Source: Narthecium ossifragum (lineage: Eukaryota; Streptophyta; Magnoliopsida; Dioscoreales; Nartheciaceae). From it: 64,000 nucleotides of DNA. The notes under the pieces are model-generated. The model saw only the letters and a program-made list of their open reading frames with translations. It ran no database searches and was not told where the DNA came from. Every line of letters begins with the position of its first letter. The first letter of the stretch is position 1. Below are positions 1 to 64,000 of the stretch, piece by piece. A program made the translations under genes and the position numbers. The stretch spans positions 15,328,290 through 15,392,289 of the forward strand of contig OY986965.1 of the NCBI GenBank assembly GCA_963920575.1. Reading direction: 5' to 3'.

Positions 1-1
1 C

Positions 2-3000
2 CCTAACCCTAATCCTAACCAGCCTCCTACCACAACTCCTAGTCCCCCTAGGACTCCTCATGAACCAGTCCACATCCAGGAAGGATTCGGCCCTAGTCCC
101 AACTACATCTTGGTTGGACCAGGTCCTACCCCTCCCACCCAACCGGCTCAACCAGCCCACACCACACCCCTGGCCGGCTCCACCACCTTACCACCACCAC
201 CTGGCTCCACTGTCCTTCCACCCCCACCATACCAGCCTCTATATCCAACCTATCACCTCCCTCCATACCAGCAGCCTGCGCCCCCTCCACATGTCCCCTA
301 CAACCCAGCTCCTGCACCACCCCATTACTACCCTCCTCACACCCCACCGCCCTATGAGCAGCCCCATGACCCAATCCGTGAGCAACCCCTTGCTGCCCGG
401 ATTCCCCGCATGGACTTCCCCCGCTATGAAGGAGCTGCAGATCCTACTCACTGGATCCTGAAGGCAGAGCAGTTCTTCTCTTATCATCCTATCCATGAGC
501 GAGAGAAGGTCCGCTATGCCGCCTATCATTTCGATGGAGATGCCCAGACATGGTACCAACTGTCGAAGGATACGGACGAGTGCGCAACATGGCATACCTT
601 CCAGCATGCCTTGCACTTGCGCTATGGACCGACGACCTACGAGGACCCCATCGGCGAACTCACTCGAATTCAGCAAGATGGTTCAGTCCGAGACTACCAG
701 ATCCGGTTTGATCGTGGTCTAGGTCGTGTTCCACACTTGGCTCGGGACGTGGTACTGAGTCTCTTCATCAGTGGACTGAAACCGGCCATCAGGTACGATG
801 TTCAGCTCGCTAGACCAGCCACCATAGCCGAGGCTATCAGCTATGCCAAGACTCATGAGGCGAAGCAGTACGCGATCCGGCATGCTACGGCAAGGACGAC
901 GCCTGCACCTACCCGTCCAGCCCCCGCTGCCCGTACCGCGCGCGCGAACTGGAGTTCGAGTGAGACTAGGACTCCTAGTCCTACTCCAACTAGGACTCCT
1001 AGTCAGACTCAAACTACAGTCCAACCCCAACGGAGACAGCTATCCCTAGCTGAACTGCAACAACGAAGATCACAAGGACTTTGCTTCCAATGTGACGAGC
1101 CCTTTACACCGGGGCACCGCTGTAAGCAGCTGTTGAGCATTGAGATCGTCAACGAGGAACCAACCGTGGAAGATCTGGGTGAAGCTGACTTGGAAGAGGA
1201 GACCCCGGTCCTAGATGAGCATGGAGAACCCTCACTTGGCATGATGATTGGCCAAGTGTTTGTGGATCTTCCAGCCACCAAGTCCCTGGTAGAGGATCCG
1301 CTACCGTCGCCAACTTCTGATCCTGTCCCTCCTAATCCAGACAACCTCTCCCACGGCCAACTTGAGTTCAGCCCCGCCGTCATGACAGCATCGCCACACT
1401 CGATAGCTGCCATCTCTAGTCCGGTTCCTCAGTGGCTAGAACCAATTCAAGAGGATGTCAAAACTAATGCGGAGATGCAAAAGCTCGCCAAGGACATCCA
1501 AGACGGAATCACCAAGGGCCCGTGGACAGTTCGCAATGTAGTCATCTTCCACAAGGACCGCATCTTCTTGAGGAAGAACGCCCCAGTCATTCCGGAGATC
1601 TTGGCGACCCTACATTCCAGCACACATGAGGGGTTCGTCAAGATGTGGCACCGGCTGCGAACCACCTTCTATTGGAAGGGAGCTCAGGCGCGGATCAAGG
1701 ACTTCATCCGCCAATGTGACACCTGCCAGCGACACAAGGTCGAGACTCTAAAGCCAGCCGGCCTACTTCAGCCCCTACCAATTCCCCAAGAGGTATGGAC
1801 TGATGTTTCTATGGACTTCATCGATGGCCTTCCTTCTTCTAGAGGATACACGGCAATTCTAGTAGTCGTCGACAGATTGTCCAAGTATGCACACTTTGCT
1901 CCCCTACGGCATCCCTACACGGCCTATTCTGTAGCACGAGTCTTCTTCGACACCGTGTTCAAGCACCATGGCATGCCAACCAGTATTGTTTGTGATCGAG
2001 ATCCCACCTTCACCAGCAACTTTTGGCAGGAGATCTTCAAACTCCAGGGAGTCAAGTTCAGATTTTCCTCAGCCTACCACCCACATACAGATGGCCAAAC
2101 GGAGGTAGTTAATCGGTCCCTTGAGATGTACTTACGCTGTTTTTCAGGTGATCGACCTTCACGGTGGACCCAATGGCTGACCTGGGCGGAATACACCTAT
2201 AACACCAGTTGGCACTCCAGCATCCAGCGGACGCCTTATGAGGTTGTGTATGGCCGACCCCCACCTACCCTCTTGTCCTATGTATCTGGAACGGCTAGAT
2301 CAGCAGCTGTAGATCACTTCTTAGTTGAAAGGGATCAAGTGATAGCAGATGTCAAGTCAAGGTTAGCAGCTGCCCAGAACAGGATGAAGCAGACCTATGA
2401 TCGTGGACATCGAGACGTCGAGTTTCAGATTGGTGAGATGGTCTACGTCAAGCTACAGTCCTATCGACATAAGTCCGTGGTCAAGCGCAAGTCACAGAAG
2501 CTCGCTGCGAAGTTCTATGGGCCATACGAGGTACTGGAGCGTATAGGAGCTGTCGCCTATCGCCTCCGACTCCCATCAGATCCCAAGGTGCACCCTGTTT
2601 TTCATGTATCACTTCTGAAAAAGCACATTGGAATTGAAGTACCCGTCATCACCGAGATTCCGGACCCCTCAGAAGAGCAGCCTAAGCTGTATCCCCAAGC
2701 TATCATCGACCATCGGCACTTTCCCCGGCAATCAGAAGAAGTTCTAGTGCATTGGAAGGGCCATAGTCCAGCTGAAGCCACATGGGAGGTATTCACTGAT
2801 TTCTTGGATCGTTATCCTGACTTCGGCCTTGAGGACAAGGCTCTTTTCGAAGGGGGAGGGGATGATACGGTTGGAAGTCCAGCTCCACCTGGGCTAGACC
2901 AACCCACGCCCAATTATGGGGCAGGGCCCACACATGGGCTAGATCCAGTTGGGACCCACGCAGGTCAGGCCCCACCCCTTGGTAGGACCCGACCTTGGAC

Positions 3001-3043
3001 CAGGTCTCAAGCCAAAGCCGGCCTTAGGGATCCTAATCCTTAG
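2..3043 (+). CDS. Chromovirus gag-integrase fusion ORF (family B); 5' end off window
   Basis: The frame is open from base 2; no start codon need lie inside the window. In order: a proline/tyrosine-rich N-terminus; a retrotransposon capsid domain (about bases 400-900, motif WYQLSKD...LRYGP); a degenerate zinc knuckle CFQCDEPFTPGHRC (1082-1123); an acidic stretch; then directly integrase. Integrase has the HHCC finger (CDTC near 1715) and catalytic D (1814), D (1994) and E (2102) with exact DX35E spacing. A C-terminal chromodomain (about 2690-2815, VLVHWKGHSPAEATWE) ends the protein. The frame runs through the polypurine tract into the LTR. Protease, reverse transcriptase and RNase H are absent, removed by an in-frame deletion near bases 1300-1420. 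Knuckle and chromodomain resemble the Reina-type chromovirus lineage. The protein would bind RNA and integrate DNA but could not reverse transcribe, so it would need enzymes from another element. Confidence 0.85.
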   Translation, partial: PNPNPNQPPTTTPSPPRTPHEPVHIQEGFGPSPNYILVGPGPTPPTQPAQPAHTTPLAGSTTLPPPPGSTVLPPPPYQPLYPTYHLPPYQQPAPPPHVPYNPAPAPPHYYPPHTPPPYEQPHDPIREQPLAARIPRMDFPRYEGAADPTHWILKAEQFFSYHPIHEREKVRYAAYHFDGDAQTWYQLSKDTDECATWHTFQHALHLRYGPTTYEDPIGELTRIQQDGSVRDYQIRFDRGLGRVPHLARDVVLSLFISGLKPAIRYDVQLARPATIAEAISYAKTHEAKQYAIRHATARTTPAPTRPAPAARTARANWSSSETRTPSPTPTRTPSQTQTTVQPQRRQLSLAELQQRRSQGLCFQCDEPFTPGHRCKQLLSIEIVNEEPTVEDLGEADLEEETPVLDEHGEPSLGMMIGQVFVDLPATKSLVEDPLPSPTSDPVPPNPDNLSHGQLEFSPAVMTASPHSIAAISSPVPQWLEPIQEDVKTNAEMQKLAKDIQDGITKGPWTVRNVVIFHKDRIFLRKNAPVIPEILATLHSSTHEGFVKMWHRLRTTFYWKGAQARIKDFIRQCDTCQRHKVETLKPAGLLQPLPIPQEVWTDVSMDFIDGLPSSRGYTAILVVVDRLSKYAHFAPLRHPYTAYSVARVFFDTVFKHHGMPTSIVCDRDPTFTSNFWQEIFKLQGVKFRFSSAYHPHTDGQTEVVNRSLEMYLRCFSGDRPSRWTQWLTWAEYTYNTSWHSSIQRTPYEVVYGRPPPTLLSYVSGTARSAAVDHFLVERDQVIADVKSRLAAAQNRMKQTYDRGHRDVEFQIGEMVYVKLQSYRHKSVVKRKSQKLAAKFYGPYEVLERIGAVAYRLRLPSDPKVHPVFHVSLLKKHIGIEVPVITEIPDPSEEQPKLYPQAIIDHRHFPRQSEEVLVHWKGHSPAEATWEVFTDFLDRYPDFGLEDKALFEGGGDDTVGSPAPPGLDQPTPNYGAGPTHGLDPVGTHAGQAPPLGRTRPWTRSQAKAGLRDPNP
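2849..2862 (+). other. Polypurine tract of the B element
   Basis: A 14-base purine run sits immediately before the LTR TG. It primes plus-strand DNA synthesis in LTR elements and here also encodes part of the pol C-terminus. Confidence 0.8.
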
Positions 3044-3727
3044 CTGGTTACTACCTTAGTTAGTTCTTAATTGCTTTCCTAGTTGATTTCCTAGTTTGAG
3101 TCCAGTTTATGCTTTGTTTTATTAGTTCCTATTTTGAGTCCAGTTTGTTAGGGAGTTTGAGTTATGATTGAGTCTTAGTAGGAAAGTATGGTTACTTGCT
3201 GATTAAAGCAAGGTAACTATCTCTAGTTGAAGTAGGACTCTCTTGAGGCCTCTATAAAAGGACCTCCATAGCTTGTATTAGGTTTTATGCATTGAAGAAT
3301 AAAGTTAGTAGTTAAAGTAGGATATCTTAGGAGTAGTTCTAATTTAATATTCCACCACCACCAGCCCCTCCCACGTTTCTCTCTCTTGCTGGCCTTCTCC
3401 ACCCGCCAGCTACCACCATCACCACCGCCGTCCACCGCTACCAGCCACCGCTCCAATCCCGGCATCCTCCTTGGCCGCCGCCCCTCTTCTTCCACCTCTC
3501 TTGGCGTGGATCTCCAAGAGTAACCAGCCAACCACAAGAGGATCTGCAAGGTAACCTCTTCTCTATCGTCTCCTACCTCCAGTCTTCATCTTCCTCGTCG
3601 AATACCTAGGGTCCTTCTCCTAAAACCCTAAAGGTATCTCTCGACCTAGCCATAGATTTGGCTAAGGAAGAACTGAGACCAGGGAAGAGACCAGGTACCC
3701 GTGCCTACGAGAAGGCACGGCGTAACA
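2863..3727 (+). repeat. 3' LTR of the B chromovirus
   Basis: It begins TGATACGG after the polypurine tract and ends CGGCGTAACA, an imperfect terminal inverted repeat. The length of 865 bp fits the other B LTRs (about 859 bp for the solo copy). A TATA box lies in the middle and a pyrimidine-rich leader follows. The last 180 bases of the pol ORF overlap the LTR start. The 5' LTR lies off the window, so age cannot be estimated. Confidence 0.85.
3253..3260 (+). promoter_or_regulatory. TATA box of B LTR
   Basis: TATAAAAG within a block (GAGGCCTCTATAAAAGGACC) that recurs with small changes in every A, B and C LTR in the window. It is the likely core promoter for the element transcript. Confidence 0.7.
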
Positions 3728-22481: not shown

Positions 22482-22484
22482 GTT

Positions 22485-22496
22485 TGGTATCAGAGC
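22485..22496 (+). other. Primer-binding site of element D
   Basis: TGGTATCAGAGC three bases after the LTR end, initiator-methionine tRNA type. Confidence 0.88.
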
Positions 22497-22683
22497 AGGC
22501 TGTAGGTCCTTCGGGATAGGATTAGGTCTGCGGTTGAGATTTGAGCGGGGTTGGGATAGTTCTAAGTCTAGAACATCCTTGCATGCTTGACTTTTTGCCG
22601 AGTGTGATGTGTTTATTTTATTGATGTGATGATCTATTTTGGTCTCTAACGGATGAACATCCGTGTCTCTGGTGTCTGTGCAG

Positions 22684-26721: not shown

Positions 26722-27459
26722 CCTTGTCGCTCACCAATATGCTGGACAGAGGTCGGAGAGGCGTCACTCACCGGGCCGGACATCATCAGGCAATCTTCAG
26801 AGAGTTTGGCGCAGATCAGGCAGAGGCTCTTGACAGCTCAAAGCAGACAGAAAAGCTATGCAGATAGGAGGAGGCGACCGTTAGAGTTTGCAGTGGGGGA
26901 CAGAGTCTTCCTGAAGGTTTCTCCACGCAGAGGATCGATCAGATTTGGCAACAGAGGCAAGTTGACACCGAGGTTCACGGGTCCCTTCGAGATCGTGAGG
27001 CGTGTCGGAGAGGTCGCCTACCAGTTATCATTACCCCCACACCTGTCCGCTGTTCATCCTACCTTTCACGTGTCGATGTTGAGGAAGTATGTTTCAGACC
27101 CATCGCACGAGATCAGAGTCGACGACATTGATGTTGAGGAGGATGCCACATACATAGAGGAGCCGGTGCAGATCATGGACAGGCGGGACCAGGTACTCAG
27201 AGGCAGATCGATACCGTTAGTGATGGTCCGTTGGAGACATGGCAATACCGAAGAGTTGACTTGGGAGCGAGAGGATCGTATGCGCCGAGAGTTCCCAAGA
27301 TTGTTCCTTCCAGCAGGTAGACTTCTTTCGGGCGTTGGCGCCCCTAGCTGTAGCCTTGTCTTGTCTGTGCAGGTAGGCTTAGAGTGCTTGTTTCTTTTCT
27401 TCGGCCCTACCCTTAGCGAATTTCGCGGACGAAATTCCTTTAAGGGTGATAGGTTGTGA
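26722..27459 (+). CDS. Element D integrase C-terminus with chromodomain
   Basis: Continues in the same frame after TGA 26719-26721. It contains the SPICWTEVGE and SRQKSYADRRRR linker, the GPFEIVRRVGEVAYQLSLP and HPTFHVSMLRKYV module common to this clade, then a chromodomain-like segment (about 27140-27305, ending LTWEREDRMRREFPRLF). The family usually has arginine after ALYG, which suggests the TGA arose from CGA. A chromodomain directs integration to particular chromatin; this Tekay-type version lacks the canonical aromatic cage. The frame closes with a TGA overlapping the LTR start. Bases after about 27310 are the untranslated tail in element terms. Confidence 0.88.
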   Translation, partial: PCRSPICWTEVGEASLTGPDIIRQSSESLAQIRQRLLTAQSRQKSYADRRRRPLEFAVGDRVFLKVSPRRGSIRFGNRGKLTPRFTGPFEIVRRVGEVAYQLSLPPHLSAVHPTFHVSMLRKYVSDPSHEIRVDDIDVEEDATYIEEPVQIMDRRDQVLRGRSIPLVMVRWRHGNTEELTWEREDRMRREFPRLFLPAGRLLSGVGAPSCSLVLSVQVGLECLFLFFGPTLSEFRGRNSFKGDRL

Positions 27460-30072
27460 GGACACGTTCCTCTAATCCGGCTCGACCGCGTCGGTCGAGG
27501 GCCGATCCCTTTCTTGGATTGTTCTCGCGTCGAGTGCGATCGGCTGATCGCATGGCCTCTTTGCAACCCCAGGGGCAATTTGGTCAAATTGCGCCCTGTC
27601 GGGTGATTTCACACGCGTGTAACGCACACACGGCCTTATAATGATGTATGTGCTTGAGTAGACCCATAGGAGTGATCTAGATCTGAGGATCGGGGTTTGA
27701 TCAGGTAGATCCAGATCTGAACGGCCGTGATCAATTTGATGATGATCAAACGGTTGTGGACTTAAACAACCTAATTAGTTAAACTTAACCCTACTTTTCA
27801 TTCACTCTCCCTCTCGCGAGACTTCTTCCTGGGTGACGGCGCAACGGCTGAGGAGAGGGAGAGACCGCGACTCGACTGGAAGGAGAAGAGGGCGGCGGCG
27901 GCCGGCCAAGGAGCTAGAGGCGGCGTCCACGGCGACGACGGAGGGCTAGGCGAGCTCTGCGACCGCGACTGGAGGTGGTGGCGAGCTTGTGAACGGCAAC
28001 CGCGGCCGGAGAAGAAGGAGAGGGACGAGATCCCGACGCCTAGAGGTAGGGATTCCTACCCAAATCGTGGATTTGGCCTCTAGGGTATTGTTTGTTGCAT
28101 GCTAGAATAGGATTGCAGTGTTCTGTTACTCCGTGATTTCTCTGTTGATGTTCTTCCCTTCTTAGAGCATGCCGTCGTATAGATCTAGTTGCTAGTAGTG
28201 ATTTCTTTGACGAGGTTTGCTTCCCTTCTCGCTGGTGTGTTGTGGGTTGATGAGATTCTTCCTCTGATTTCTTTCCCCTGTTCTTGGCCGGCCGGAGACT
28301 TGAGTTGCCTGATTTCCCTTGAAGCTTCGGGTATTCGTTTCTGTTTCCTTCCTCATCCCAGTTGCTGCAGTGTCATCTCTTTTCCATGCTCGATCCCTCT
28401 ATTTTCCTTCCGGGTGCCAAGGGTTGTTGAGGGGTGGCATTGTTCAGTCTGCTGCGAGGGTGTGAGTTCCATTCCCGTAAGCTCTGTCTTTGAGGATTGG
28501 TTTGGGTTTTGCTGGACCCCGTAGGGGAGTTGAGTTGGGGTTCTGATTGGCCTTGCTGGGTAGATGGCCCTCCTTCCCTCTGTTGTCCTCCCCAGGTTTC
28601 GCTACTGCCATGGTGAACCTATGAATTCGTCCCCTTTGCTGGTATGGATGGTCATTACCAGATTTGGAGTCAGTCCTTGGTTGGATTTCACTATCAGCCC
28701 GAACTGAATATTACTACCACTCTTATGAACCATATGTTTATCTTTTTCTTCAACTCGTATAATTACTCGCCATACCATTGAATTATATATTGTTATAGCA
28801 TGCTTCTGCCTAGGGCCGGCGGTGTGCCCGTTTCTATTTCTTTGTGGGTTAACCAAGGGAGTGACGCCCCTTGGGAATGTTTAGATTTAATTGGGCCGAA
28901 GGTGTGCCCTATTGTATGTGTTGAATAAGATGATATATGATTGGGATATGTGAAAGTCTATGTTTGGCTTCTGTCTATTCTTAAATGCTAAATCTATTTT
29001 ATAGCTATGCTATAACTTGTGGACATGTGGTTGATGAATTGACATGTAGAGACACCTAGGCCTAGTTGTTTGAATAGGCTCATGCATGTTGTATGCATTA
29101 GAAGCATTAAGGCTAGGTGCGGGCGATGGGCTCGATCGCCGATCCGAGGGCTCGGGTAGCTCGGATCTAGCTTTAGGACCGAGGTATGGGTAGGAGGATT
29201 AGGGCGAGATTGTGTGGTTATGATCTTATGTTGATTGAGGTTACAACCTAGATATAATCATGTGAATTATGATGTTGAGGAATAGAGGTCGTGTTGTCTC
29301 TTTGTCCCAAGGGTCTAAGTGTGGATGTCGATGTCCATGACGTATGTCCCCGTACAAGGGGTGGTGTACGGCGAGAGCTCCGGCGGTGAGTGCAGCGGCG
29401 ATGCACCGACCCTGGGTCCGGGCTCGTGTTGGCTGTCCTCCTTGTTTCGCCGCTTGGGTGAGGGTGACCCTATGTAGGGGCCCATTCTGGATCGACGAGG
29501 TGTGAGGCCTCCAGTAGCACCTTAGCCTTGGGATGAAAGATAACACAATTGCAGTTTACCCTTTCCTTGAGAGTGCCGTAGAGTAGAACCCTACTGGGCT
29601 TTATGCTCACCCTACCCGGGCTGCGTTTTGCAGGTGCAGGCGCCGCTCCTTCCACTTCAGTAGCCACTGGCGGATCAGCTCTTGGAGGCGCATCTACTTC
29701 GGGTGGACTTTGAGGTTGTTGACAGACTAGAGGATTTAAATTCAGCTTTATATTTATTTAATGTAGTCAAACATTTGGAGACTTATGCATCTTATTTGAG
29801 GACAAATTGTATAACCGTCAATTTTGATATTAATGACAAAGTCTTTTATTTGGATGTTTAATTGGATTGTAATCATGATATCAGTATGAGTCTGCAAATT
29901 ATGCCCTTTGATTCTGTATTTGAATTTACTGTGAAATATGAGGAATTGTACAGGTCCTTGTGTAAGAATTGTAGAGGAGATTCTGTCAAAATTCTCCGCG
30001 CCATTGATGATGTAACAGGTTTAGGTTGCTCACTCCCCGATCTGGATGGGTTTTCTGGGTCGGGGCGTGACA
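27455..30072 (+). repeat. 3' LTR of element D
   Basis: Preceded by the conserved GGACGAAATTCCTTTAAGG block and purine-rich tract. Its end GGGGCGTGACA is followed by the AGGAG duplication. The TTTTGCAGGTGCAGGCG block is at 29626-29642. Confidence 0.93.
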
Positions 30073-45091: not shown

Positions 45092-46422
45092 TGATACGAG
45101 TCGATCCGACTCGACCAACTGGACCCGAACCCAGAAGAGGAACCAAACTGGTTCAGCCTCTTTCCTAGTTTGACTTGGACTTCCCTAGTTCAAACTAGAG
45201 TATTTAATTAGTATTTATCATTAGTCTTTTATTGAGTCCTAGTTGATATTTGATTGTTAGGAATTAATTAAGAGTCCCTTTGAGTTAGGAAGTTGAGTTG
45301 AGTCAGAAACCTTATTACTTACTAATCAAGCAAAGGGGTTTTCTAGTGGATTAGGACTTTGTCGTCTCTATAAAAGGACCTCAGTAGTTTGTATTAGGTT
45401 ATGATGATCAATGACGAATGATGAATGAAGAGTTATGAATTATTAGGAGTAGTTGATATATTATCATAGGAGTAGAGATAATATAGCTTCCACCCGATAT
45501 CTACCATAGATCCATCTTCTTCCCTGTCGGTCATCTTCCCCGCAGCCGGCACCGCCTCCACCAGTGTTTCTCTTTCCCCCGTCACTTTCTCTCTCCGCCA
45601 CGTCAGCGACCCCACCGCCACGTCAGCGCCACGTCACCCGCACTATTCATCGTCTCCCTCCTCAAGTCGTACCCTCGCTCCCGGCGATCTCCTCTGTCAA
45701 GCCCTCTACGGCCGCCCCCGTCGCCAACCAAGGTCACCACCGACTTCGCCTATCTCCCACGACTCCGACCAACCCCTCCATCGCCCGCATCGTCTTCTCC
45801 GGCGGAATCCCCGTCATTCCCCACTTCACAGCCGCCGCCGTCTTCCACGACCCCGACCGCCATTAACCCCCCAGATCCCTCCCCAGTTCCCGGCCGACCT
45901 CCCTAAACCGATCCCAACCCTTCTAAGCCACGCCCGAGCCTCGCCTTCGTCCCCGACGTCGATCCCCTCTAAACCCACCGTTGGCCACCTCCAAGATCCC
46001 TTTGATCCAGCCATTCTCCGACCAATCCAACCCTTCGGATCTCATGCCCACCTCCAGGTGACCCTTCCTGGAAGTATCCCGACCGCCGCCGCCGCTCCTA
46101 CGCCAACGATCCACTCCGGCGATCCTCATCCGTTGGATCCAGGCTGGTTCAGCCCAATCTAATTAGGTTCAGCCACTTAACCCACTCCTAACCGTTTCAG
46201 CCAAGCCACTTAGCCCAATCCGAGCCAGATTCAATTCCAAGAGCCAATCAACCAATCCAGACTTGACCCAGTCGAGTCCTACCCCAATCTGAGCCAGATC
46301 TGAACCAGATTCGATCCAGCTTCAGCCCATTGGACTCAAATCAAGTCCGATCAGGCCGATTCTGATCGATTGGAGCAGTAGAGACCCATTACGAGAGGAT
46401 CACGAGTAGACCGCTCGTAACA
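45092..46422 (+). repeat. Family C solo LTR (TSD CATGC)
   Basis: TGATACGAGTC...CGCTCGTAACA, 1331 bp. CATGC is at 45087-45091 and 46423-46427. After the duplication the H2 sequence continues for only about five more bases (ATGTG) before unrelated sequence begins. No PBS follows this LTR, which argues against it being the 5' LTR of the C element to its right. Confidence 0.82.
45369..45376 (+). promoter_or_regulatory. TATA box of C solo LTR
   Basis: TATAAAAG followed by GACC, the shared A/B/C core. Confidence 0.6.
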
Positions 46423-46688
46423 CATGCATGTGTGTACGAGGCCCAATCCGACGATCAGATCGTACGGATGGAACCCCCACGTCCCTGCGAAGCTTCCTGT
46501 GCCGTTGCCACACTCCGGCAACCTGGTTTCGCCATTGATCCAGCTCCGACAGCTTCTCAACCGTCCGATCAAGACTGCAACTTGACCAGCCGTTTGATCA
46601 GCCTAATCTTCGATCCAGTGGTTCCGATCTTCGATCTGAATCTGATCCAAGAGTCCTCAGCAATCAGGACCAGCTAGATCAACTCCGG

Positions 46689-47312
46689 GTGATCAAGATG
46701 CATCCTCAGCCGTTGATCAAGCATTCAAAGGTTGATATAAGCCATGAAAGGAGCTACCCTCCTTATCCAAATGCCATATTCAATCTGATCATATCTGACC
46801 ATGATGGTAACACCGGTTTGGCTCAATTGACTCAAGTCCAGATTGACACCGGTAGAGCCAACCAAGTCAGACAGGTTTGGACCAGAGTACGACTCAGCAC
46901 AGCTGAAGATTCAACTTGGTTCAACCAACTTCTAGCCCAGACTAGTGCAGCAGAAGCATGGTCCAACCATCTTCACTTCAGATTGGATCAAAGCCAGCTT
47001 GCCCCAGATTCAAGCCAAGTCCCTGCACAGTTGATCAGACCATGGAAATCAGATCCCATCCGATGGTCATGGGCAACACTATTGATGGGACATGATGAGG
47101 ATGATCCAGGAGAGCCATTGAAGATCATATTCATGGAGCTACCTGAGCCGTCAGATCAACCCCCAGATGCTCTATCCTCATCACAATCCATCATATGCTT
47201 GGTACTGCTATCACTGGACCCATCATGGGATCGACCTGGTTTCACCCCACCGAGTCCAAAGCTACAGAAGCAAGTTGATTCGGTCCACATAGAGCCATCC
47301 TACCTGACTTGA
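46689..47312 (+). CDS. Unrecognised ORF of the C element
   Basis: 207-residue open frame, probably the tail of a longer one whose 5' part was lost. It has no gag or pol motif. Residues about 86-170 correspond to the middle of the family A ORF: SAAEAW, a leucine/glutamine segment, PIRWSWATLLMGHDEDDPGE and PEPSDQPPDA, then DPSWDRPGFTPPS near the end. In the 30 best-aligned codons (47037-47126 against 50974-51063) five codon differences are synonymous and three change the residue. It is hydrophilic and proline/serine-rich with no membrane segment. Function unknown. It may be a structural or accessory protein of this non-autonomous lineage, or a fragment captured from elsewhere. Confidence 0.5.
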   Translation: MIKMHPQPLIKHSKVDISHERSYPPYPNAIFNLIISDHDGNTGLAQLTQVQIDTGRANQVRQVWTRVRLSTAEDSTWFNQLLAQTSAAEAWSNHLHFRLDQSQLAPDSSQVPAQLIRPWKSDPIRWSWATLLMGHDEDDPGEPLKIIFMELPEPSDQPPDALSSSQSIICLVLLSLDPSWDRPGFTPPSPKLQKQVDSVHIEPSYLT

Positions 47313-47642
47313 CTCTGGCCTTGAGGGCAAGGCCAATTCTGAAGGAAGGGGGATGATACGAGTCGATCCGACTCGACCAACTGGACCCGAACAGAGAAGA
47401 GGATCCAAACTGGTTCAGCCTCTTTCCTAGTTTGACTTGGACTTCCCTAGTTCAAACTAGAGTATTTAATTAGGATTTATCATTAGTCTTTTATATTTAA
47501 TTGAGTCCTATTTGATATTTGATTGTTAGGAATTAATTAAGAGTCCATTTGAGTTAGGAAGTTGAGCTGAGTCTGATAGCCTTATTACTTGCTAATTGAG
47601 CAAGGGGGTTTCCTAGTTGGATTAGGACTCTGTCAAGGTCTC

Positions 47643-47650
47643 TATAAAAG
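47643..47650 (+). promoter_or_regulatory. TATA box of C 3' LTR
   Basis: TATAAAAG in the conserved block. Confidence 0.6.
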
Positions 47651-48127
47651 GACCTCATTAGTTTGTATTAGGATGATGAATGAAGAAAAGAATTATTAAG
47701 AATAGTTGATAGAATATCATAGGAGTAGAGGTAATGTAGATTCCCCCATATATCCACCATCGATCCACCATTGATCCACCTTCTTCCCCGTCGGTCATCT
47801 TCTCCGCAGCTGGCACCGCCTCCACCGGTATTTCTCCATACACGGCACTTTCTCTCTCCACCACGTCAGCACTCTCTCTCCCCGACACCTGCCACCTCAG
47901 CATCATCTTCTCCGCTTCTCTCCCGTGCCCAAACCCTAAGCTACCGCCGACCATGGTCGTTCTCTCCTCTTTGGCCGCCCCCGTCGCCATCCAATTGCGC
48001 CAACTCCTTCCCCTAAGCCCACGACTCCGGCCATCCCTTTCCCGCCGTCTTCCATCTCCTTCTGCGTCTTCCCCGGCAACCCAACCTGCCGACCTCCGCC
48101 AGCCCTTCCGCGTCCGTCCCCGATATC

Positions 48128-48979
48128 TGATACGAGGTCGAACCGAGCCATTCCAAGAAGGGTCCCACGTCCTTGCTTGGATGGGCCCACGCTAAGGAGT
48201 TGGCTGCACCCAAGTCCCTTTGGGCGTTCTAAGCTCAGCCGGCCAAAGGAATCCTATTCCTAGCTGGTTTGCTTACTTAGATGATTTCCTAGTTAGTAGT
48301 TATTTTGATTGAGTCAGTTTCCTAATTTGAGTTCAGTTTATGATTTGCTTTATTAGTTCCTATTAAGAGTCCTAGTAATCAGGAAGTTTGAGTTATGATT
48401 GAGTCTTAGTAGGAAAGTATGGTTACTTGCTGATTAAAGCAAGGTAGTTCTCTAGTTGGAGTAGAACTCTCTTGAGGCCTCTATAAAAGGACCTCTATAG
48501 CTTGTATTAGGTCATGGACGAATTTATGAGAGTTATTATTTAGTACAGATAAATCTTAGGAGTAGAAGTAATATAGGAGTAGCTGTAACCCTAGTTTCCA
48601 CAGAAATCCACCAGCCACCTTCATCTCTCTCCTGCCGGATTCTTTCTCCACTAGCCGGCCACCATCCATTGCCGTCCACCGCTGCCATCTACAGTGCACG
48701 TCCCCATCACCGGCGTCCCCTTGGCTGCCGTGCTTCCCTCCCCCACGTTCTCCAAGGCTTGGATCTCCAAGAGAAGCCAGCCAACCCTAGAGGAGCTGCA
48801 AGATATCCCTCTTCTCATCCGTCTCCTCCTCTAGTCTTCGCCTTCCTCGTCGAATACCTAGGGTCCTTCTCCTAAAACCCTAAAGGTATCTCTCGACCTA
48901 GCCATAGATTTGGCTAAAGAGGATCTGAGATAAGGCAAGAGACCCGGTACGAAAGCCCTTGAGAAGGTGCATCGTATCA
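48128..48979 (+). repeat. 5' LTR of element A
   Basis: 852 bp with an 8-bp terminal inverted repeat. A pyrimidine-rich leader with ACCCTAAAGGTATCTCTCGA near the end is shared with family B. Confidence 0.92.
48482..48489 (+). promoter_or_regulatory. TATA box of A 5' LTR
   Basis: TATAAAAG in GAGGCCTCTATAAAAGGACC; the probable start of the element A transcript lies shortly downstream. Confidence 0.7.
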
Positions 48980-48981
48980 AC

Positions 48982-48994
48982 TTGGCATCAGAGC
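48982..48994 (+). other. Primer-binding site of element A
   Basis: TTGGCATCAGAGC two bases after the LTR. One base differs from the initiator-methionine type (TTGGTATCAGAGC). Confidence 0.75.
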
Positions 48995-49041
48995 TCTTTC
49001 CTCTTACCTGTGCCCTCCCGAATCCTTCCGAAGGAGTCCAC

Positions 49042-51162
49042 ATGGCAGGAAGAGTACCTGGCCAAAACCCTAGTTATACCGTGAATTGCTCAAACCCTAC
49101 ACGGATCACTGTTCATCCGACCAGACCTACTCCTATACCTGGTCGAATCCCTCTTCCACATCATCATCCCTTACCCCCATCATCATCCCTACAGAACCCT
49201 AACCAACCTCCACCCTATGCAGCCTACAACCCAATGCTTCCACAACCCTATTATTGTTCACCTCACACCTTACCTGCCTATACACCGACCCATTATCCAA
49301 ACCGTGAGCCCCTATACCCGGCCCATGCCCAGCCTCCATACCAGCAGCCTATGCCACCTCCCTACACACCGTACAACCCTAGTCTTCCCTACAATCCATC
49401 ACCACCGTATCATCCATTACCTACTCCGTACAACCAACCCAAACCTACAAACACCAATGGCTACTTGAGTACAACTTGGACTCCAAATCCTACTGGAACT
49501 AGGATTACAAATCCTACTCCAACTAGGAATTCGAGTCAAACTCAGAGTACGACTTGGACTCAAGATCCTACTGGAACTAGGATTGCAAATCCTACTCCAA
49601 GTAGGAATCCTAGTCAAACTCGGAGTACGACTTACCCTACGGCTGAACAATGGAAGGAAGCTGTCCAGAGTTGCATCCCTTTGCCTTACCCTTCAGTAGA
49701 ACAATGGGAAGTAATGATCCAACGATATTCTCCTACAAATCAGTCAAGCCCTACCAGAGTTCAGATTTCCAAAGAAAATCCCATTCTAGCTGCAACTTGG
49801 ATTGCAAAACATAAACCCAGCTTTACCGGGATTAGGACTCCTCATACTCCACCTACCCATGAGCTGCCCCATGACCAAAACCATGAACAACACCCGCTGC
49901 CCCCTCACCCAACCACACCACATCCCACGACCAGCAACTCTCCCTACTCCTCCCCGGCAGCCCCCACCACAAATCAAGGCCACCCTCTTTCCCCCTACAA
50001 ACCCACGGCCCCCCGTTCTCCAGCCCTACAGCCGATTGTCATCTCCGGCAATCCACCTGAAGTCCACAAAACTGCAGCCACCGACCTTACCTCAGTTCAT
50101 GCCCTCCCCGTACCATGTAACCCCCACCAAGGCCCTCCTCATTCCTACCCCGTTCCATCCCGAAACCAGCCGGCCCCCAAATCCATCTCCTTCAACTCCG
50201 ACAGCAACCCCCAAGGTAATCGCTGCCTACCTGCCCCTGATCCTACCATAACCTCCTTCCATGGCCCACTGAAGGATCTCTCAAGCCAACAAAGGCCGTC
50301 CCCTAAACCTCCTGACCCTTCCCGTATCCTTACTGAGGCCGACTCCAAACCCCAACCAGCATATCACCGTCGGTTCCATCTCCTCACCCTTGACCAACGT
50401 GGACCCCCTCCAGATCCACCACCTGAACTGACCCCTGGCCAGATTCACTTCGTTGGATCGAACCCCCATCCTCTCACTACCTCTTCCCCATGGGATGTAA
50501 AATCCGACGAGCTTCCCTCACAAGCAATTGAGTTCTGGCCACCTCCAGCTGCCAGATCTCAATCCAATCCCAAGCTTCTTCAAGCACTGGACATATCTCA
50601 ACCATCAGATCAGATCAGATCAAATCACCACCGTTTGAACCTGATCGTCCGACTCCATCTTCCACACTCGATCGAGTCAGACTCCAGCTTACAATACTTG
50701 GACAGATTCAATCCAGGCACAACCAGGTTTGGTTACACCAACCAGATCCGACCAAGCTCAGATCAGACCAAGCTAAGTCAGACTCAATTGGATGCAGCCA
50801 GAATCAATCCGGCTAGATCTGATTGCACCCAGCCAAGCTCCATCAAGCTCAGTCAAACTGAACCTGATCAAGATCCAAATAGTGCAGCAGAAGCGTGGCC
50901 CAGCCGACTTCACTTCAGACTGGGCCAAAGCGAGCTTGACTCAGCATCAAGCCAAGACCCTGCACATCCGACCAGGCCATGGAGATCAGATCCCATCCTA
51001 TGGTCATGGGCGACACTACTCATGGGACGTGACGAGGATGATCCAGGAGAACCATTGAAGATCCCATGCTTGGGGCCAACTGAACCATCAGATCGTCCCC
51101 CGGATGCTCCGTCCTCGACACGACTGTATCCAGCCGCTGTCTTAGGTCTACTTCCATCTTGA
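49042..51162 (+). CDS. Element A long proline-rich ORF, main part
   Basis: The ATG at 49042 (MAGRVPGQNPSYTVN) follows the PBS; 706 residues to TGA 51160-51162. Residues about 25-140 are rich in Pro, Tyr and Asn and resemble the N-terminus of family B gag (PLYP....PPYQQP.PPP..PYNP in both). Residues about 150-205 repeat a threonine/asparagine/proline unit (TGTRITNPTPTRN, TGTRIANPTPSRN), also related to a short B gag segment. A long Pro/His/Ser-rich middle follows with no recognisable fold. From about residue 610 a compact segment shared with family C begins (SAAEAW, WSWATLLMGRDEDDPGE, PSDRPPDAPSS). No zinc knuckle, capsid core, protease or polymerase motif is present. The minus-strand copy has TGG where this frame has TGA, so the frame once ran on. 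Function unknown; possibly a gag-like or RNA-binding protein. Confidence 0.65.
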   Translation: MAGRVPGQNPSYTVNCSNPTRITVHPTRPTPIPGRIPLPHHHPLPPSSSLQNPNQPPPYAAYNPMLPQPYYCSPHTLPAYTPTHYPNREPLYPAHAQPPYQQPMPPPYTPYNPSLPYNPSPPYHPLPTPYNQPKPTNTNGYLSTTWTPNPTGTRITNPTPTRNSSQTQSTTWTQDPTGTRIANPTPSRNPSQTRSTTYPTAEQWKEAVQSCIPLPYPSVEQWEVMIQRYSPTNQSSPTRVQISKENPILAATWIAKHKPSFTGIRTPHTPPTHELPHDQNHEQHPLPPHPTTPHPTTSNSPYSSPAAPTTNQGHPLSPYKPTAPRSPALQPIVISGNPPEVHKTAATDLTSVHALPVPCNPHQGPPHSYPVPSRNQPAPKSISFNSDSNPQGNRCLPAPDPTITSFHGPLKDLSSQQRPSPKPPDPSRILTEADSKPQPAYHRRFHLLTLDQRGPPPDPPPELTPGQIHFVGSNPHPLTTSSPWDVKSDELPSQAIEFWPPPAARSQSNPKLLQALDISQPSDQIRSNHHRLNLIVRLHLPHSIESDSSLQYLDRFNPGTTRFGYTNQIRPSSDQTKLSQTQLDAARINPARSDCTQPSSIKLSQTEPDQDPNSAAEAWPSRLHFRLGQSELDSASSQDPAHPTRPWRSDPILWSWATLLMGRDEDDPGEPLKIPCLGPTEPSDRPPDAPSSTRLYPAAVLGLLPS

Positions 51163-51708
51163 AAGGATTTGATTCAGGTCGACCGAGTCTTTGACCTAGG
51201 ACACCAGCACTTGAGGTGGCCCCATCGTCAATCTACAGCCGCCCTCTACTTCTTGGAGTTCCAGAGGCCGCCAGATCCACCTAAGTTTCAGCCTCCTCCT
51301 TCTAGACCGGCAGCATGGCTCTTTGATTCACCAATCCGGTTACCACCTGATCCACCAGGGGTGCGACCAGGGTTCTCACCAGCTGCATGGCCCCCTGATT
51401 CAATGGCCCAGTTACCATTAGATCCACCATGGGCCAGACCGGGATTCTCACCGCCGAGTACAGAGCAATAGTTGCGGTCCAGCCACATCACTCCGGTTAG
51501 AGAAGAGAAGAGCCCTCTTTCCTCATCACATTCAGGCCTTGAGGACACGGCCAATTTCGAAGGGAGGAGGGATGATACGAGGTCGAACCGAGCCATTCCA
51601 AGAAGGGTCCCACGTCCTTGCTTGGATGGGCCCACGCCAAGGAGTTGGCTGCACCCAAGTCCCTTTGGGCGTTCTAAGCTCAGCCGACCAAAGGAATCCT
51701 ATTCCTAG
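51163..51708 (+). pseudogene. Element A ORF, continuation to polypurine tract and LTR
   Basis: Same frame as 49042-51162, interrupted only by TAG 51469-51471. Text: KDLIQVDRVFDLGHQHLRWP, RPAAWLFDSPIRLPPDPP and two near-repeats of PPDP..RPGFSP. After the TAG comes SGLEDTANFEGRRDDT, which parallels the C-terminal tail LEDKALFEGGGDDT of the B integrase protein. The minus-strand copy has CAG at the TAG position and keeps the frame through the polypurine tract. This indicates a single ancestral protein of close to 890 residues, ending inside the LTR as in family B. Confidence 0.6.
51559..51572 (+). other. Polypurine tract of element A
   Basis: GAAGGGAGGAGGGA directly before the LTR TG. Confidence 0.85.
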
Positions 51709-52424
51709 CTGGTTTGCTTACTTAGATGATTTCCTAGTTAGTAGTTATTTTGATTGAGTCAGTTTCCTAATTTGAGTTCAGTTTATGATTTGCTTTATTA
51801 GTTCCTATTAAGAGTCCAAGTAATCAGGAAGTTTAAGTTATGATTGAGTCTTAGTAGGAAAGTATGGTTACTTGCTGATTAAAGCAAGGTAGTTCTCTAG
51901 TTGGAGTAGAACTCTCTTGAGGCCTCTATAAAAGGACCTCTATAGCTTGTATTAGGTCATGGACGAAATTATGAGAGTTATTATTTAGTACAGATAAATC
52001 TTAGGAGTAGAAGTAATATAGGAGTAGCTGTAACCCTAGTTTCCACAGAAATCCACCAGCCACCTTCATCTCTCTCCTGCCGGATTCTTTCTCCACCAGC
52101 CGGCCACCATCCATTGCCGTCCACCGCTGCCATCTACAGTGCACGTCCCCATCACCGGCGTCCCCTTGGCTGCCGTGCTTCCCTCCCCCACGTTCTCCAA
52201 GGCTTGGATCTCCAAGAGAAGCCAGCCAACCCTAGAGGAGCTGCAAGGTATCCCTCTTCTCATCCGTCTCCTCCTCTAGTCTTCGCCTTCCTCGTCGGAT
52301 ACCTAGGGTCCTTCTCATAAAACCCTAAAGGTATCTCTCGACCTAGCCGTAGATTTGGCTAAAGAGGATCTGAGATAAGGCAAGAGACCCGGTACGAAAG
52401 CCCTTGAGAAGGTGCATCGTATCA
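51573..52424 (+). repeat. 3' LTR of element A
   Basis: 852 bp, the same length as the 5' LTR. Ends GTGCATCGTATCA, then the ATATC duplication. Confidence 0.92.
51927..51934 (+). promoter_or_regulatory. TATA box of A 3' LTR
   Basis: TATAAAAG in the conserved block; could direct transcription into the flanking C LTR. Confidence 0.6.
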
Positions 52425-52993
52425 ATATCGCCCCCAAAACCACCCTAAAACCCTCACCGACCTTCCTAGACCCGATCCCCACCGTCCCAAGCCCCGCCGA
52501 GCTCTCCGTCGTCGTCCCCGACGCCGGCCTCCTCTAAACCGCAATCCACCTCCCAGATCCGGCCGATCCGCCACCTACCTCCCAGATCCGAGCCGTTGGA
52601 TCGTTTCCCCACCATCCTACGACCCTCCCTGCCAAGATCCCGACCGCTGCCGCCACCCCTACGCCGGCGATCCACTCCGGCGACCTCTCAACCGTCGGAT
52701 CTTCCCAGCCAACTCTTGACCCACTCAGCCAGCCTTAACCAGTTCAGCCAAGCCACTTAAGCCGGATCCAGCCCAATTCAACCCGGTCAGCCTGATCCAG
52801 ATCAACTCAAACTTGACCCAATCAAGTCCTATCCTATCAGGCTCAGCCAGATCTGGACCAGATCGAGCCAGATCCAATCCAGCTAACCAGATTAAGCCAA
52901 TTGGACTCAAACCAAGTCCGATCTGGCCAATTCTGATCAATTGGAGCAGTAGAGACCCGATACAAGAGGATTACGAGTAGACCGCTCGTATCA

Positions 52994-53340
52994 TAATATT
53001 TGCATTGGAAAAGTTTCGTGTTTACGTCCTAGGTTCCAAAATCCTTATATACACTGATCATTATGCCTTGCGATATCTTTTAGTTAAAAAGGATGCCAAA
53101 CCCAGACTGATTCGATGGATCTTGCTTTTGCAAGAATTTGATCTAGAGACTAGAGATAAGAAAGGCTCAGAAAATGTAGTTGCTGATCACTTGTCTCAGC
53201 TTCCTTTGGAATATATTTCTGATAACACTCATGTAAATACTTTCTTTCCAGACGAGCATCTCTTTCAGGTGACTTGTCTTTCACAACCTTGGCACATATA
53301 GTCAATTATCTTTGTTTCAGCCAAGCTTCCCGACTCATTG
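52994..53340 (+). pseudogene. H2 RNase H, right copy
   Basis: Begins at the base equivalent to 44657 of the left copy and repeats [40 protein letters not shown] and VADHLSQL. It differs from the left copy at scattered bases and retains about 64 bases (about 53267-53330) missing there. TAG at 53299-53301 stops the frame. Repetition on both sides of the C/A block shows the two flanks are not one interrupted sequence. Confidence 0.8.
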
Positions 53341-60946: not shown

Positions 60947-62130
60947 TGATATTGCTTAAATGTGTCACAACACAGCGGTGCAGTGTAGCATAACATAAGA
61001 GAGGTTGAACCCACAGAGAGACAAGCAGAAAGATCCAAAACGCAAATAACAATGAATTGAAGACAAACGAGAACTTAAGAGTTAACTGAATTAGATCAAA
61101 GGATTTAATTATAATGTAAGATTAATTAAAGATATCAGTGTGTTAAGGTGGCTAGGCGTCAGGAATCCCTTCACTCGGACTTAGGTTCTTCTTCTAGCAA
61201 CGGTTCATTCAATACTCAGTTAAGGGATTCACATCCCAATCACCTTAACCGGAAGATATGAAATTATGAATCTAACAAAATATAAAAATGTCTCTTCCTA
61301 TGATTGATTCTTCTTTATTATAGTTCTAATTTCATCCAACCCAAACTTAAGAATATATGATACCGGCTGTCACTACATGCAACATATAGCAAAAGTTCAT
61401 CGGGACAAAGCCCCCTAACTCTATCTTACCAGATCTCTAAGAATATACAATACCAACTCTCACAATCGGCAATGTGTAGCAAAGATTTCATGAGATAAAG
61501 TAGGTAAACAATAGATATAATGCTTGAAGATTCAATACATAGAAAAGAGTTTAAAGATAAAGATTAAAACTATGAACCATGATGAAGAAGAAACCCTAAT
61601 CCTCGCTAGATCATCCATTCGCCATGCCCGCGGATTACTCGGCTATGGATGGAGATTTCTTCATCCTCTTCCTTGTCTTTCTCCCCTCCAAAGCTCTGTA
61701 AAAAAACCCCCTTGGAACCAGCCAAATTTTGGATTAAAATAACCATATATATAGGGGAACTCCCGAAATTAGGGTTTTAGTTGAGTTGGACTTTTGGTGC
61801 AACTCGGATTTCCTGAATTCATCCTAGCAGCCCTATTCTGGTCGCGACTGGATCCAATCCATCTGGCATTTGGAAACGTACTCAACAAGAAAGTTGTAGA
61901 TTAGGAAGTCTTCTACCAGATCCGGAAGATTTCGTAATAGTCTGAGTTATATAGAATATTTTAAGAATATTCTTCTCAGCTTCGACAGAACAGTTTTTCA
62001 GCTTGTCTAACTTCATCTATTCTTCCAATCTGCAATCACACCATCTAGAATATCACAAAATGTCCAACATAAAAGTTGTAGATCTTTCAAACTTATATCA
62101 CGTATTCAAATTTCAGAATATGTAGACTAC
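60947..62130 (-). repeat. Athila-like LTR, partial
   Basis: The plus-strand start TGATATTGCTTAAATGTGTCA mirrors the H2 LTR end. On the minus strand the text near 61750-61870 and 61900-62100 resembles 37200-37620 (GTCCAACTCAACT, ACAACTTT..GTTGGACA). The outer LTR end is not reached because the A LTR begins at 62131. It is probably inserted in the E' LTR and itself hit by the A element. No coding function. Confidence 0.65.
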
Positions 62131-62978
62131 TGATACGATGCACCTTCTCAAGGGCTTTCGTACCGGGTCTCTTGCCTTATCTCAGATCCTCTTTAGCCAA
62201 ATCTATGGCTAGGTCGAGAGATACCTTTAGGGTTTTAGGAGAAGGACCCTAGGTATTCGACGAGGAAGGCGAAGACTAGAGGAGGAGACGGATGAGAAGA
62301 GGGATACCTTGCAGCTCCTCTAGGGTTGGCTGGCTTCTCTTGGAGATCCAAGCCTTGGAGAACGTGGTGGAGGGAAGCACGGCAGCCAAGGGGACGCCGG
62401 TGATGGGGACGTGCACTGTAGATGGCAGCGGTGGACGGCAATGGATGGTGGCCGGCTGGTGGAGAAAGAATCCGGCAGGAGAGAGATGAAGGTGACTGGT
62501 GGCTTGTGGAATTAGGGTTACAGCTACTCCTATATTACTTCTACTCCTAAGATTTATCTCTACTAAATAATAACTCTCATAAATTCGTCCAAGACTTAAT
62601 ACAAGCTATAGAGGTCCTTTTATAGAGGCCTCAAGAGAGTTCTACTCCAACTAGAGAACTACCTTGCTTTAATCAGCAAGTAACCATATTTTCCTACTAA
62701 GACTCAATCATAACTCAAACTTCCTGATTACTAGGACTCTTAATAGGAACTAATAAAGCAAATCATAAACTGAACTCAAACTAGGAAACTGACTCAATCA
62801 AGATAACTACTAACTAGGAAATCATCTAAGTAAGCAAACCAGCTAGGAATAGGATTCCTTTGGCCGGCTGAGCTTAGAACGCCCAAAGGGACTTGGGTGC
62901 AGCCAACTCCTTGGCGTGGGCCCATCCAAGCAAGGACGTGGGTCCCTTCTTGGAATGGCTCGGTTCGACCTCGTATCA
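62131..62978 (-). repeat. 3' LTR of second element A
   Basis: Plus-strand TGATACGATGC...CCTCGTATCA, 848 bp, nearly identical to the LTRs at 48128 and 51573. It is followed by the reverse complement of the A polypurine tract (62979-62992), so the element runs leftward with its 5' part off the window. Confidence 0.9.
62617..62624 (-). promoter_or_regulatory. TATA box of second A LTR
   Basis: Reverse complement of TATAAAAG in the conserved block. Confidence 0.6.
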
Positions 62979-64000
62979 TCCCTCCTCCCTTCGAAATTGG
63001 CCTTGTCCTCAAGGCCTGAATGTGATGAGGAAAGAGGGCTCTTCTCTTCTCGAACCGGAGTGATGTGGCTGGACCGCAACTGTTGCTCTGTACTCGGCGG
63101 TGAGAATCCCGGTCTGGCCCATGGTGGATCTAATGGTAACTGGGCCATTGAATCAGGGGGCCATGCGGCTGGTGAGAACCCTGGTCGCACCCATGGTGGA
63201 TCAGGTGGTAACCGGATCGGTGAATCAAAGAGCCATGCTGCCGGTCTAGAAGGAGGAGGCTGAAACATAGGTGTGGATCTTGCGGCCTCTGGAACTCCAA
63301 GAAGTAGAGGGCGGCTGTAGATCGACGATGGGGCCACCTCAAGTGATGGTGTCCTAGGTCAAAGACTCGGTCGACCTGAATCAAATCCTTCCAAGATGGA
63401 AGTAGACCCAAGACAGCGGCTGGATACAGTCGTGCCGAGGACGGAGCATCCGGGGGACGATCTGATGGTTCAGGTGGCTCCAAGCATGGGATCTTCAATG
63501 GTTCTCCTGGATCATCCTCGTCACGTCCCATGAGTAGTGTCACCCATGACCATAGGATGGGATCTGATCTCCATGGCCTGGTCGGATGTGCAGGATCTTG
63601 GCTTGATGCTGAGTCAAGCTCGCTTTGGCCCAGTTTGAAGTGAAGTCGGCTGGGCCACGCTTCTGCTGCACTATTTGGATCTTGATCAGGTTCAGTTTGA
63701 CTGAGCTTGATGGAGCTTGGCTGGCTGCAATCAGATCTAGTCGGATTGATTCTGGCTGCATCCAATTGAGTCTGACTTAGCCTGGTCTGATCTGAGCTTG
63801 GTCGGATCTGGTTGGTGTAACCAAACCTGGTTGTGCTTGGATGGAATCTGACCAAGTCTTGTAAGCTGCAATCTGACTCGACCAATTGTAGGTGATGGAG
63901 TCGGAGTTTGATCAGGTTCAAACCGTAGTGATTTGATTTGATCTGATCAGATAGCTGAGTGGCTCTGGCAACTGAGAGGGAACTGAACTTGGTCGCCGGT
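62979..64000 (-). pseudogene. Second element A, 3' part of the long ORF
   Basis: The minus-strand frame 63921-63130 (263 residues, open upstream of the first ATG in related text) aligns with the end of the 49042-51708 frame: SAAEAW, WSWVTLLMGRDEDDPGEP, PEPSDRPPDAPSS, then LLPSWKDLIQVDRVFDL. TGG (63391-63393) replaces the TGA of the first copy. A two-base insertion near 63265 shifts the frame. The other frame continues FQPPPSRPAAWLFDSP, RPGFSPPSTEQQLRSS with CAG (63080-63082) instead of TAG, and LEDKANFEGRRDDT into the LTR. This copy therefore lacks both stops of the first but has its own indel. The region beyond about 63921 is GATC-rich. Confidence 0.7.

What the first reader, a model, noticed from the sequence alone, without database searches (positions are those of the whole stretch)
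49042..51708. Family A non-autonomous element carries one very long ORF of unknown function
Seen: a single frame from ATG 49042 to 51708 (about 889 codons, passing the polypurine tract into the 3' LTR) broken only by TGA 51160-51162 and TAG 51469-51471. The minus-strand copy has TGG and CAG at exactly these places (63391-63393, 63080-63082). Both differences are transitions. Inference: the ancestral A element encoded a protein of close to 890 residues without reverse transcriptase or integrase. That is unusual for a deletion derivative, which normally decays to noncoding.
Basis: partly seen in the sequence, partly recalled or inferred. Interest (0 to 1): 0.75.

Follow-up and report, generated by a model that had tools for sequence, protein, structure and literature searches.

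The report
Hollowed-out retrotransposon with open frame
A plant jumping element that has lost its own enzymes still carries one long readable frame, which its lineage keeps free of stop signals although the amino acids drift almost freely, suggesting that being translated matters more than the protein made.

Summary
In detail: one frame runs from ATG 49042 to a stop 44 codons inside the 3' LTR (51706), broken only by TGA 51160 and TAG 51469. The element is a young 4.3-kb non-autonomous LTR retrotransposon in a 379-Mb, plant-like genome. Of 96 scored loci, 75 lie in the densest 2 Mb of 13 large contigs. The ORF's origin is largely explained. Its leader, start codon, proline-rich stretch, linker repeats, polypurine tail and final LTR stop match the gag-pol frame of a chromodomain Ty3/gypsy partner in the same window; no capsid, protease, RT or integrase family is found in it. 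Sixteen of 47 complete copies are open throughout. In the true frame 20 stops are private and 1 shared; the control frames together have 36 private and 47 shared by 2-20 copies. Yet amino-acid change is near neutral (omega 0.91, 0.80-1.04); the partner's capsid scores 0.11 (one pair). Best reading: translation of the RNA is selected, probably to escape RNA quality control, and the product hardly at all. A disordered Gag-like protein is the main rival. Wheat and oat have related elements with unknown proteins.

The parts
48128..48980 (+). 5' LTR of element A (853 bp); TATA-like box at 48482
   Evidence: self-comparison, 98.8% to 3' LTR; TATA position
48981..49041 (+). primer-binding site and short leader, similar to the leader of a partner remnant (minus strand, about 11434-11364)
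   Evidence: compared by eye output; AUG-poor leader
49042..51159 (+). open part of the ORF, 706 codons, proline-rich N half, C half predicted disordered
   Evidence: no Pfam; C half pLDDT 40.9 with a shallow alignment
49186..49406 (+). block matching the proline-rich N-terminal region of partner Gag
   Evidence: blastn blocks, E 2e-16 to 7e-10
49452..49648 (+). tandem copies of the partner's linker between capsid and zinc knuckle, in phase with gag
   Evidence: blastn 68-85%, phase
49838..49902 (+). second gag block, matching the stretch just before the capsid, in phase
   Evidence: blastn 80% over 66 bp
50362..51159 (+). C half of the ORF: exchangeable modules, partly shared with a second non-autonomous element (B) in the window
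   Evidence: alignment of copies; tblastn to 46632-47207
51160..51162 (+). in-frame TGA, not shared in the strict reading
51469..51471 (+). in-frame TAG, not shared in the strict reading
51535..51571 (+). tail and polypurine tract matching the partner's pol end, in phase
   Evidence: blastn 86% over 37 bp, phase
51573..52425 (+). 3' LTR; the ORF's last 44 codons lie in it, ending at TAG 51706-51708
62128..63959 (-). second copy of A, cut by the window edge
   Evidence: 96.3% to 50597-52427
1..3727 (+). remnant of the chromodomain Ty3/gypsy partner (gag, integrase, chromodomain; no RT family found) with 3' LTR from 2863
   Evidence: Pfam; LTR about 77% to A over 683 bp; sequence

Best explanation
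Element A is a non-autonomous partner of a chromodomain Ty3/gypsy retrotransposon. Its long ORF is the partner's gag-pol reading frame with both ends kept and the folded core (capsid, protease, RT, integrase) lost; the middle is disordered gag sequence and exchangeable filler modules (shown by sequence, phase and Pfam; the source of the filler is not known). Copies that replicate keep the frame open from start codon to LTR (shown), while amino acids change at close to the neutral rate (shown, within error). Inferred: what is selected is that the full-length RNA is translated to near its 3' end. A stop in the middle would leave a long 3' untranslated stretch and expose the RNA to nonsense-mediated decay and siRNA production. 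An intact frame keeps it mRNA-like until the partner's Gag packages it and its RT and integrase copy and insert it.
For: In the true frame 20 stops are private and 1 shared; the control frames have 21 and 15 private, 22 and 25 shared by 2-20 copies, and 13 and 34 shared by more (Fisher P 1e-5; all 48 rows give 21 and 1, P 7e-6, and counting by codon as well as column P 1e-4 to 8e-5). Lasting frameshifts are almost all private. The ATG-to-LTR distance is in phase in 30 of 48 copies. Omega is 0.91, bootstrap 0.80-1.04, over 15 open copies; 0.90 for private and 0.98 for shared variants. The same method gives 0.11 for the partner's capsid but 1.11 for its proline-rich stretch and 1.14 for linker plus zinc knuckle (one pair). 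Twelve of 16 open copies stop 44 codons inside the 3' LTR; the window's TAG there matches the partner's in context. The window's leader of about 515 nt has one AUG, at its start, against 4-6 expected; over 49 leaders ATG totals 54 against 136-567 for the other five orders of the same bases. Modules are swapped in frame. In plants premature stops feed decay and siRNA pathways (PMC12259633, passages).
Against: No RNA, ribosome or NMD data. Uncorrected NG86 gives pN/pS 0.68, so some weak purifying selection may exist. Nine of 23 overlapping windows score 0.58-0.75, and Pro-changing shared variants are slightly depleted (0.85). A and B differ at omega 0.82 over 79 codons. A looser stop count over 48 rows finds 5 of 27 stop columns in two copies, two of them in mis-phased stretches and one with two different stop codons. 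An Arabidopsis element with no intact ORF did transpose in ddm1 (PMC8704663, passages). The capsid control is one pair. Copies were chosen by similarity to the window's ORF.
Confidence: 0.5

Rival explanations
1. The ORF makes a useful intrinsically disordered, Gag-derived protein (for example one that mixes with partner Gag assemblies), whose function depends on length and composition rather than sequence.
For: It keeps gag parts that also evolve near neutrality in the partner (one pair); C half predicted disordered (shallow alignment); slight depletion of Pro and charge changes among shared variants (0.85 and 0.88); 9 of 23 windows of omega 0.58-0.75. Wheat analogues are thought to supply proteins.
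Against: No capsid family found, no zinc knuckle by eye; overall omega 0.91-0.98; hydrophobicity-class changes are not depleted (1.08); a module is replaced in two of 13 aligned copies.
Confidence: 0.33
2. The frame is passively inherited and the family is simply too young to have broken it.
For: LTR pairs are mostly near 99% identical (31 of 43 at 98.7% or more); omega near 1.
Against: Subfamilies differ by about 20% in protein and 636 variants are shared, yet shared stops are nearly absent in the true frame and common in control frames.
Confidence: 0.07
3. A normally constrained protein under a mix of purifying and positive selection that averages to omega near 1.
For: Omega varies from 0.58 to 1.21 along the ORF; raw pN/pS 0.68.
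Against: Private (mostly post-insertion) and shared variants give about the same omega (0.90 and 0.98); no family or relative of the pieces searched and no confident fold of the C half.
Confidence: 0.1

Closest known systems
RLG_Beth, oat centromeres (PMC13270711, passages)
   Same: Non-autonomous, centromere-located, one large protein of unknown function, LTR, PBS and PPT conserved with an autonomous chromovirus (RLG_Ava).
   Different: Protein origin and selection not described in the passages read; its partner has a CR domain, here a Pfam Chromo hit (just above cut-off). Sequences not compared.
RLG_Quinta / RLG_Cereba, wheat (PMC11302176, passages)
   Same: Non-autonomous derivative of a chromovirus with an ORF holding an unknown domain; recombined lineages.
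   Different: Quinta keeps Gag; no capsid family was found in A.
RLG_Sabrina_NA variants, wheat (PMC9744471, passages)
   Same: gag-pro gene replaced by varied sequences that still encode proteins, four of them without known relatives.
   Different: Those proteins are described as short; here one frame spans the internal region into the LTR and its ends match gag-pol.
TR-GAG elements (PMC8704663, passages)
   Same: Non-autonomous with a single long ORF; one shown to transpose.
   Different: ORF is a Gag protein; A lacks a Gag capsid family hit.

Membership tests
Non-autonomous LTR retrotransposon | LTR pair, target duplication, PBS, PPT | tested here: met
   LTRs 98.8%; TSD ATATC, PBS and PPT read by eye
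Non-autonomous LTR retrotransposon | no RT or integrase | tested here: met
   no Pfam family at E 0.01 in either ORF piece
Partner of a chromodomain Ty3/gypsy element | shared LTR, PBS leader, PPT tail | tested here: met
   LTR about 77% over 683 bp; leader by eye and tail
Partner of a chromodomain Ty3/gypsy element | mobilised in trans by it | not testable with these tools
   needs experiment
TR-GAG | ORF with Gag capsid domain | tested here: not met
   no Retrotrans_gag or Ty3_capsid hit in A, both found in the partner
LARD | large internal region without coding frame (definition recalled) | tested here: not met
   frame kept open
RLG_Beth / RLG_Quinta type centromeric pair | centromere-specific insertion | tested here: inconclusive
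   75 of 96 loci in 13 densest 2-Mb windows, 7% of the length; weak on C8, C12 and C13; no CENH3 data
RLG_Beth | sequence homology | not tested
   sequence not held

The most novel reading that the evidence does not exclude
A parasitic RNA keeps an 850-codon frame open not for its protein but so that ribosomes traverse the RNA: the ORF is a shield against RNA quality control, built from the disordered scraps of a gag-pol frame, with selection against stops and frameshifts but nearly none on amino acids.
Probability: 0.4. Interest if true: 0.8.

Novelty: new variant of a known kind. Interest (0 to 1): 0.58.

Why it matters
It gives a testable answer to why several non-autonomous retrotransposons carry proteins of unknown function: in some, being translatable may be the trait under selection. 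It also warns that 'unknown protein' annotations in such elements may be remnants of gag-pol frames, and that uncorrected dN/dS can mislead.

Tried and rejected
Protein searches with two ORF pieces found nothing; no Pfam family in two pieces and no PDB match of the C-terminal piece. Structure prediction of the C half gave pLDDT 40.9, so no fold search was made. Raw NG86 was set aside for a spectrum-corrected measure because the control frames of the N and C halves together come to 1.06 and 1.01; the short LTR part is noisy (0.70-1.21). Indel lengths counted straight from the multiple alignment were unclear (shared by 4 or more copies: 16 multiples of three, 11 not; private 17 and 34), so phase at anchors was used. 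In one search the shared stop class is 14.2 against 27.7 expected and 7 columns are flagged as carried; one search lists each column and finds that in all but one only a single copy reads a stop. Six copies with disturbed phase were dropped before (42 rows kept of 48); one search gives the 48-row stop count. A genome-wide count of partner capsid copies failed because the server was busy.

Full report
WHAT IS THERE. The window lies at C3:15328290-15392289 of an unnamed 379-Mb genome (that it is a plant is inferred from the elements). Element A spans 48128-52425 with 853-bp LTRs 98.8% identical and the duplication ATATC on both sides (read). The frame from ATG 49042 has stops only at 51160, 51469 and 51706, far fewer than shuffles give. 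No Pfam family matches its two pieces at E 0.01, and the two pieces searched (49042-51159 and 50362-51159) have no relative in the protein collection.

WHERE IT COMES FROM. The same window holds a remnant of a chromodomain Ty3/gypsy element with gag, integrase and chromodomain, whose LTR is about 77% identical to A's over 683 bp. At DNA level A's internal region matches the partner's gag in its proline-rich N-terminal stretch (best E 2e-16), in the linker between capsid and zinc knuckle (several tandem copies, 68-85%) and in the stretch just before the capsid (80% over 66 bp). It matches the end of pol at the polypurine tract (86% over 37 bp). Seven of the eight blocks checked start in the same phase as gag-pol; four of them overlap in the linker, and the eighth is a gapped block. 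At protein level the first 260 residues score 65.9 bits against the partner, shuffles at most 57.8 and the reversed sequence 49.7; with composition correction only the tail remains significant (2e-5). So the DNA matches and phase carry the argument. The leader and the ATG are alike by eye, and the partner's frame also crosses the polypurine tract and ends in its 3' LTR at a TAG in the same context as A's. Capsid, protease, RT and integrase families are absent, and the zinc knuckle too, by eye.

COPIES. A DNA search gave 522 candidates of which 40 were scored; a protein search gave 3821 candidates of which 96 loci were scored. Of these 96, 75 lie in the densest 2-Mb window of each of 13 large contigs, 7% of their length (windows chosen after the fact; C8, C12 and C13 add only 2, 1 and 2). 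I fetched 59 copies: 39 of the 40 (the other is the window's) and 20 further loci. Of 48 with both ends, 17 are open from ATG to the 3' LTR; one of these ends in a nested LTR, leaving 16 of 47. Twelve of the 16 stop 44 codons inside the 3' LTR, as in the window; the rest at 34, 50, 61 and 61. LTR-pair identity is about 99% in both open (median 99.18, n 13) and broken copies (99.08, n 30).

FRAME IS SELECTED. The distance from ATG to the 3' LTR varies widely but is in phase in 30 of 48. At 42 anchor columns lasting phase changes are almost all private; a shift seen in nine copies at one place is reversed at the next anchor. In 42 rows, read from ATG to the first lasting frameshift, the true frame has 20 stops private to one copy and 1 in two copies. 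The control frames have 21 and 15 private, 22 and 25 in 2-20 copies, and 13 and 34 in more; Fisher P 1e-5 pooled. All 48 rows give 21 and 1, P 7e-6; counting by codon as well as column gives P 1e-4 and 8e-5. A looser count finds 27 stop columns, 5 in two copies: two in mis-phased stretches, one with two different stop codons, one involving a copy later dropped, one real. On the 5' half of 30 copies, shared variants held 0 stops against 5.9 expected, private ones 4 against 8.5. Stops thus arise mostly after insertion and do not get copied.

AMINO ACIDS ARE NOT, OR BARELY. Corrected for the observed mutation types, omega over 15 of the 16 open copies (one tandem near-duplicate left out) is 0.91 (0.80-1.04 by codon bootstrap), with control frames at 1.06 and 1.01. 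Private variants give 0.90 and shared ones 0.98, so replication does not visibly filter replacements. The uncorrected value is 0.68. The partner's capsid gives 0.11 by the same method, while its proline-rich part gives 1.11 and linker plus zinc knuckle 1.14 (one pair of copies). Smaller pairs: the two A copies of the window 1.34 (29 N, 9 S), A against B 0.82 (26 N, 16 S; its off-frames 1.44 and 0.88). Nine of 23 windows lie at 0.58-0.75 and 14 at 0.81-1.21, without a separate test. Within the C half, two of 13 aligned copies carry a different in-frame module that resembles part of another element, B (by eye).

TRANSLATION SIGNALS. Downstream of the window's TATA-like box only two AUGs lie before 49042, both next to the expected transcript start, heading uORFs of 9 and 5 codons. 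The leader of about 515 nt otherwise lacks AUG. Across the 49 of 59 copies whose leader could be cut out, AUG is the rarest of the six orderings of A, T and G (54 against 136-567); 41 have none or one. The partner's leader, joined from two remnants, has no AUG before the start codon in the same stretch.

MECHANISM. Selection on frame but not on residues fits a need for translation itself. In plants, transcripts with premature stops are degraded by NMD and can feed siRNA production (PMC12259633, passages). A non-autonomous RNA that lost its middle genes would escape this by keeping the original start and the original LTR stop with any open filler between. The rival, a sequence-tolerant disordered Gag-like protein, is not excluded. 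That a non-autonomous Arabidopsis element without an ORF transposed in ddm1 argues that openness is not always needed.

KNOWN RELATIVES. RLG_Beth, RLG_Quinta and RLG_Sabrina_NA are non-autonomous grass elements with unknown proteins or domains, so the kind is known. I saw no report of a frame kept open with near-neutral residues in the listings; of PMC11302176, PMC13270711, PMC9744471, PMC8704663, PMC12259633 and PMC11963269 passages only were seen.

LIMITS. Copies were chosen by similarity to the window's ORF, to its first 359 bases, which inflates conservation of the 5' half against LTRs. The genome-wide partner control could not be run. No expression data were available.

Noticed in passing
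45092-53002: Element B: LTRs of about 1.33 kb around an internal region of only 931 bp; A is inserted in its 3' LTR. B's internal region has a frame open for 257 codons between stops, related to A's C half (41% protein identity over 206 aligned residues).
   Followed up: partly
19863-30072: A Ty3/gypsy element with 2.6-kb LTRs (99.1% identical), gag-protease and RT-RNaseH-integrase frames.
   Followed up: no
L043/L044 and L036/L041: Neighbouring copies 3363 and 3216 bp apart that appear to share LTRs: tandem LTR-internal-LTR-internal-LTR arrays.
   Followed up: no
genome matches starting near query residue 34: A set of copies aligns only from about residue 34, as if it had a different N-terminus.
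   Followed up: no
48981-50361 in L009-L047: 5' internal region often more alike (96-98%) than the LTRs (87-98%) of the same copies, with a common change-over near 50360: chimerism by template switching, or bias from how copies were picked.
   Followed up: partly
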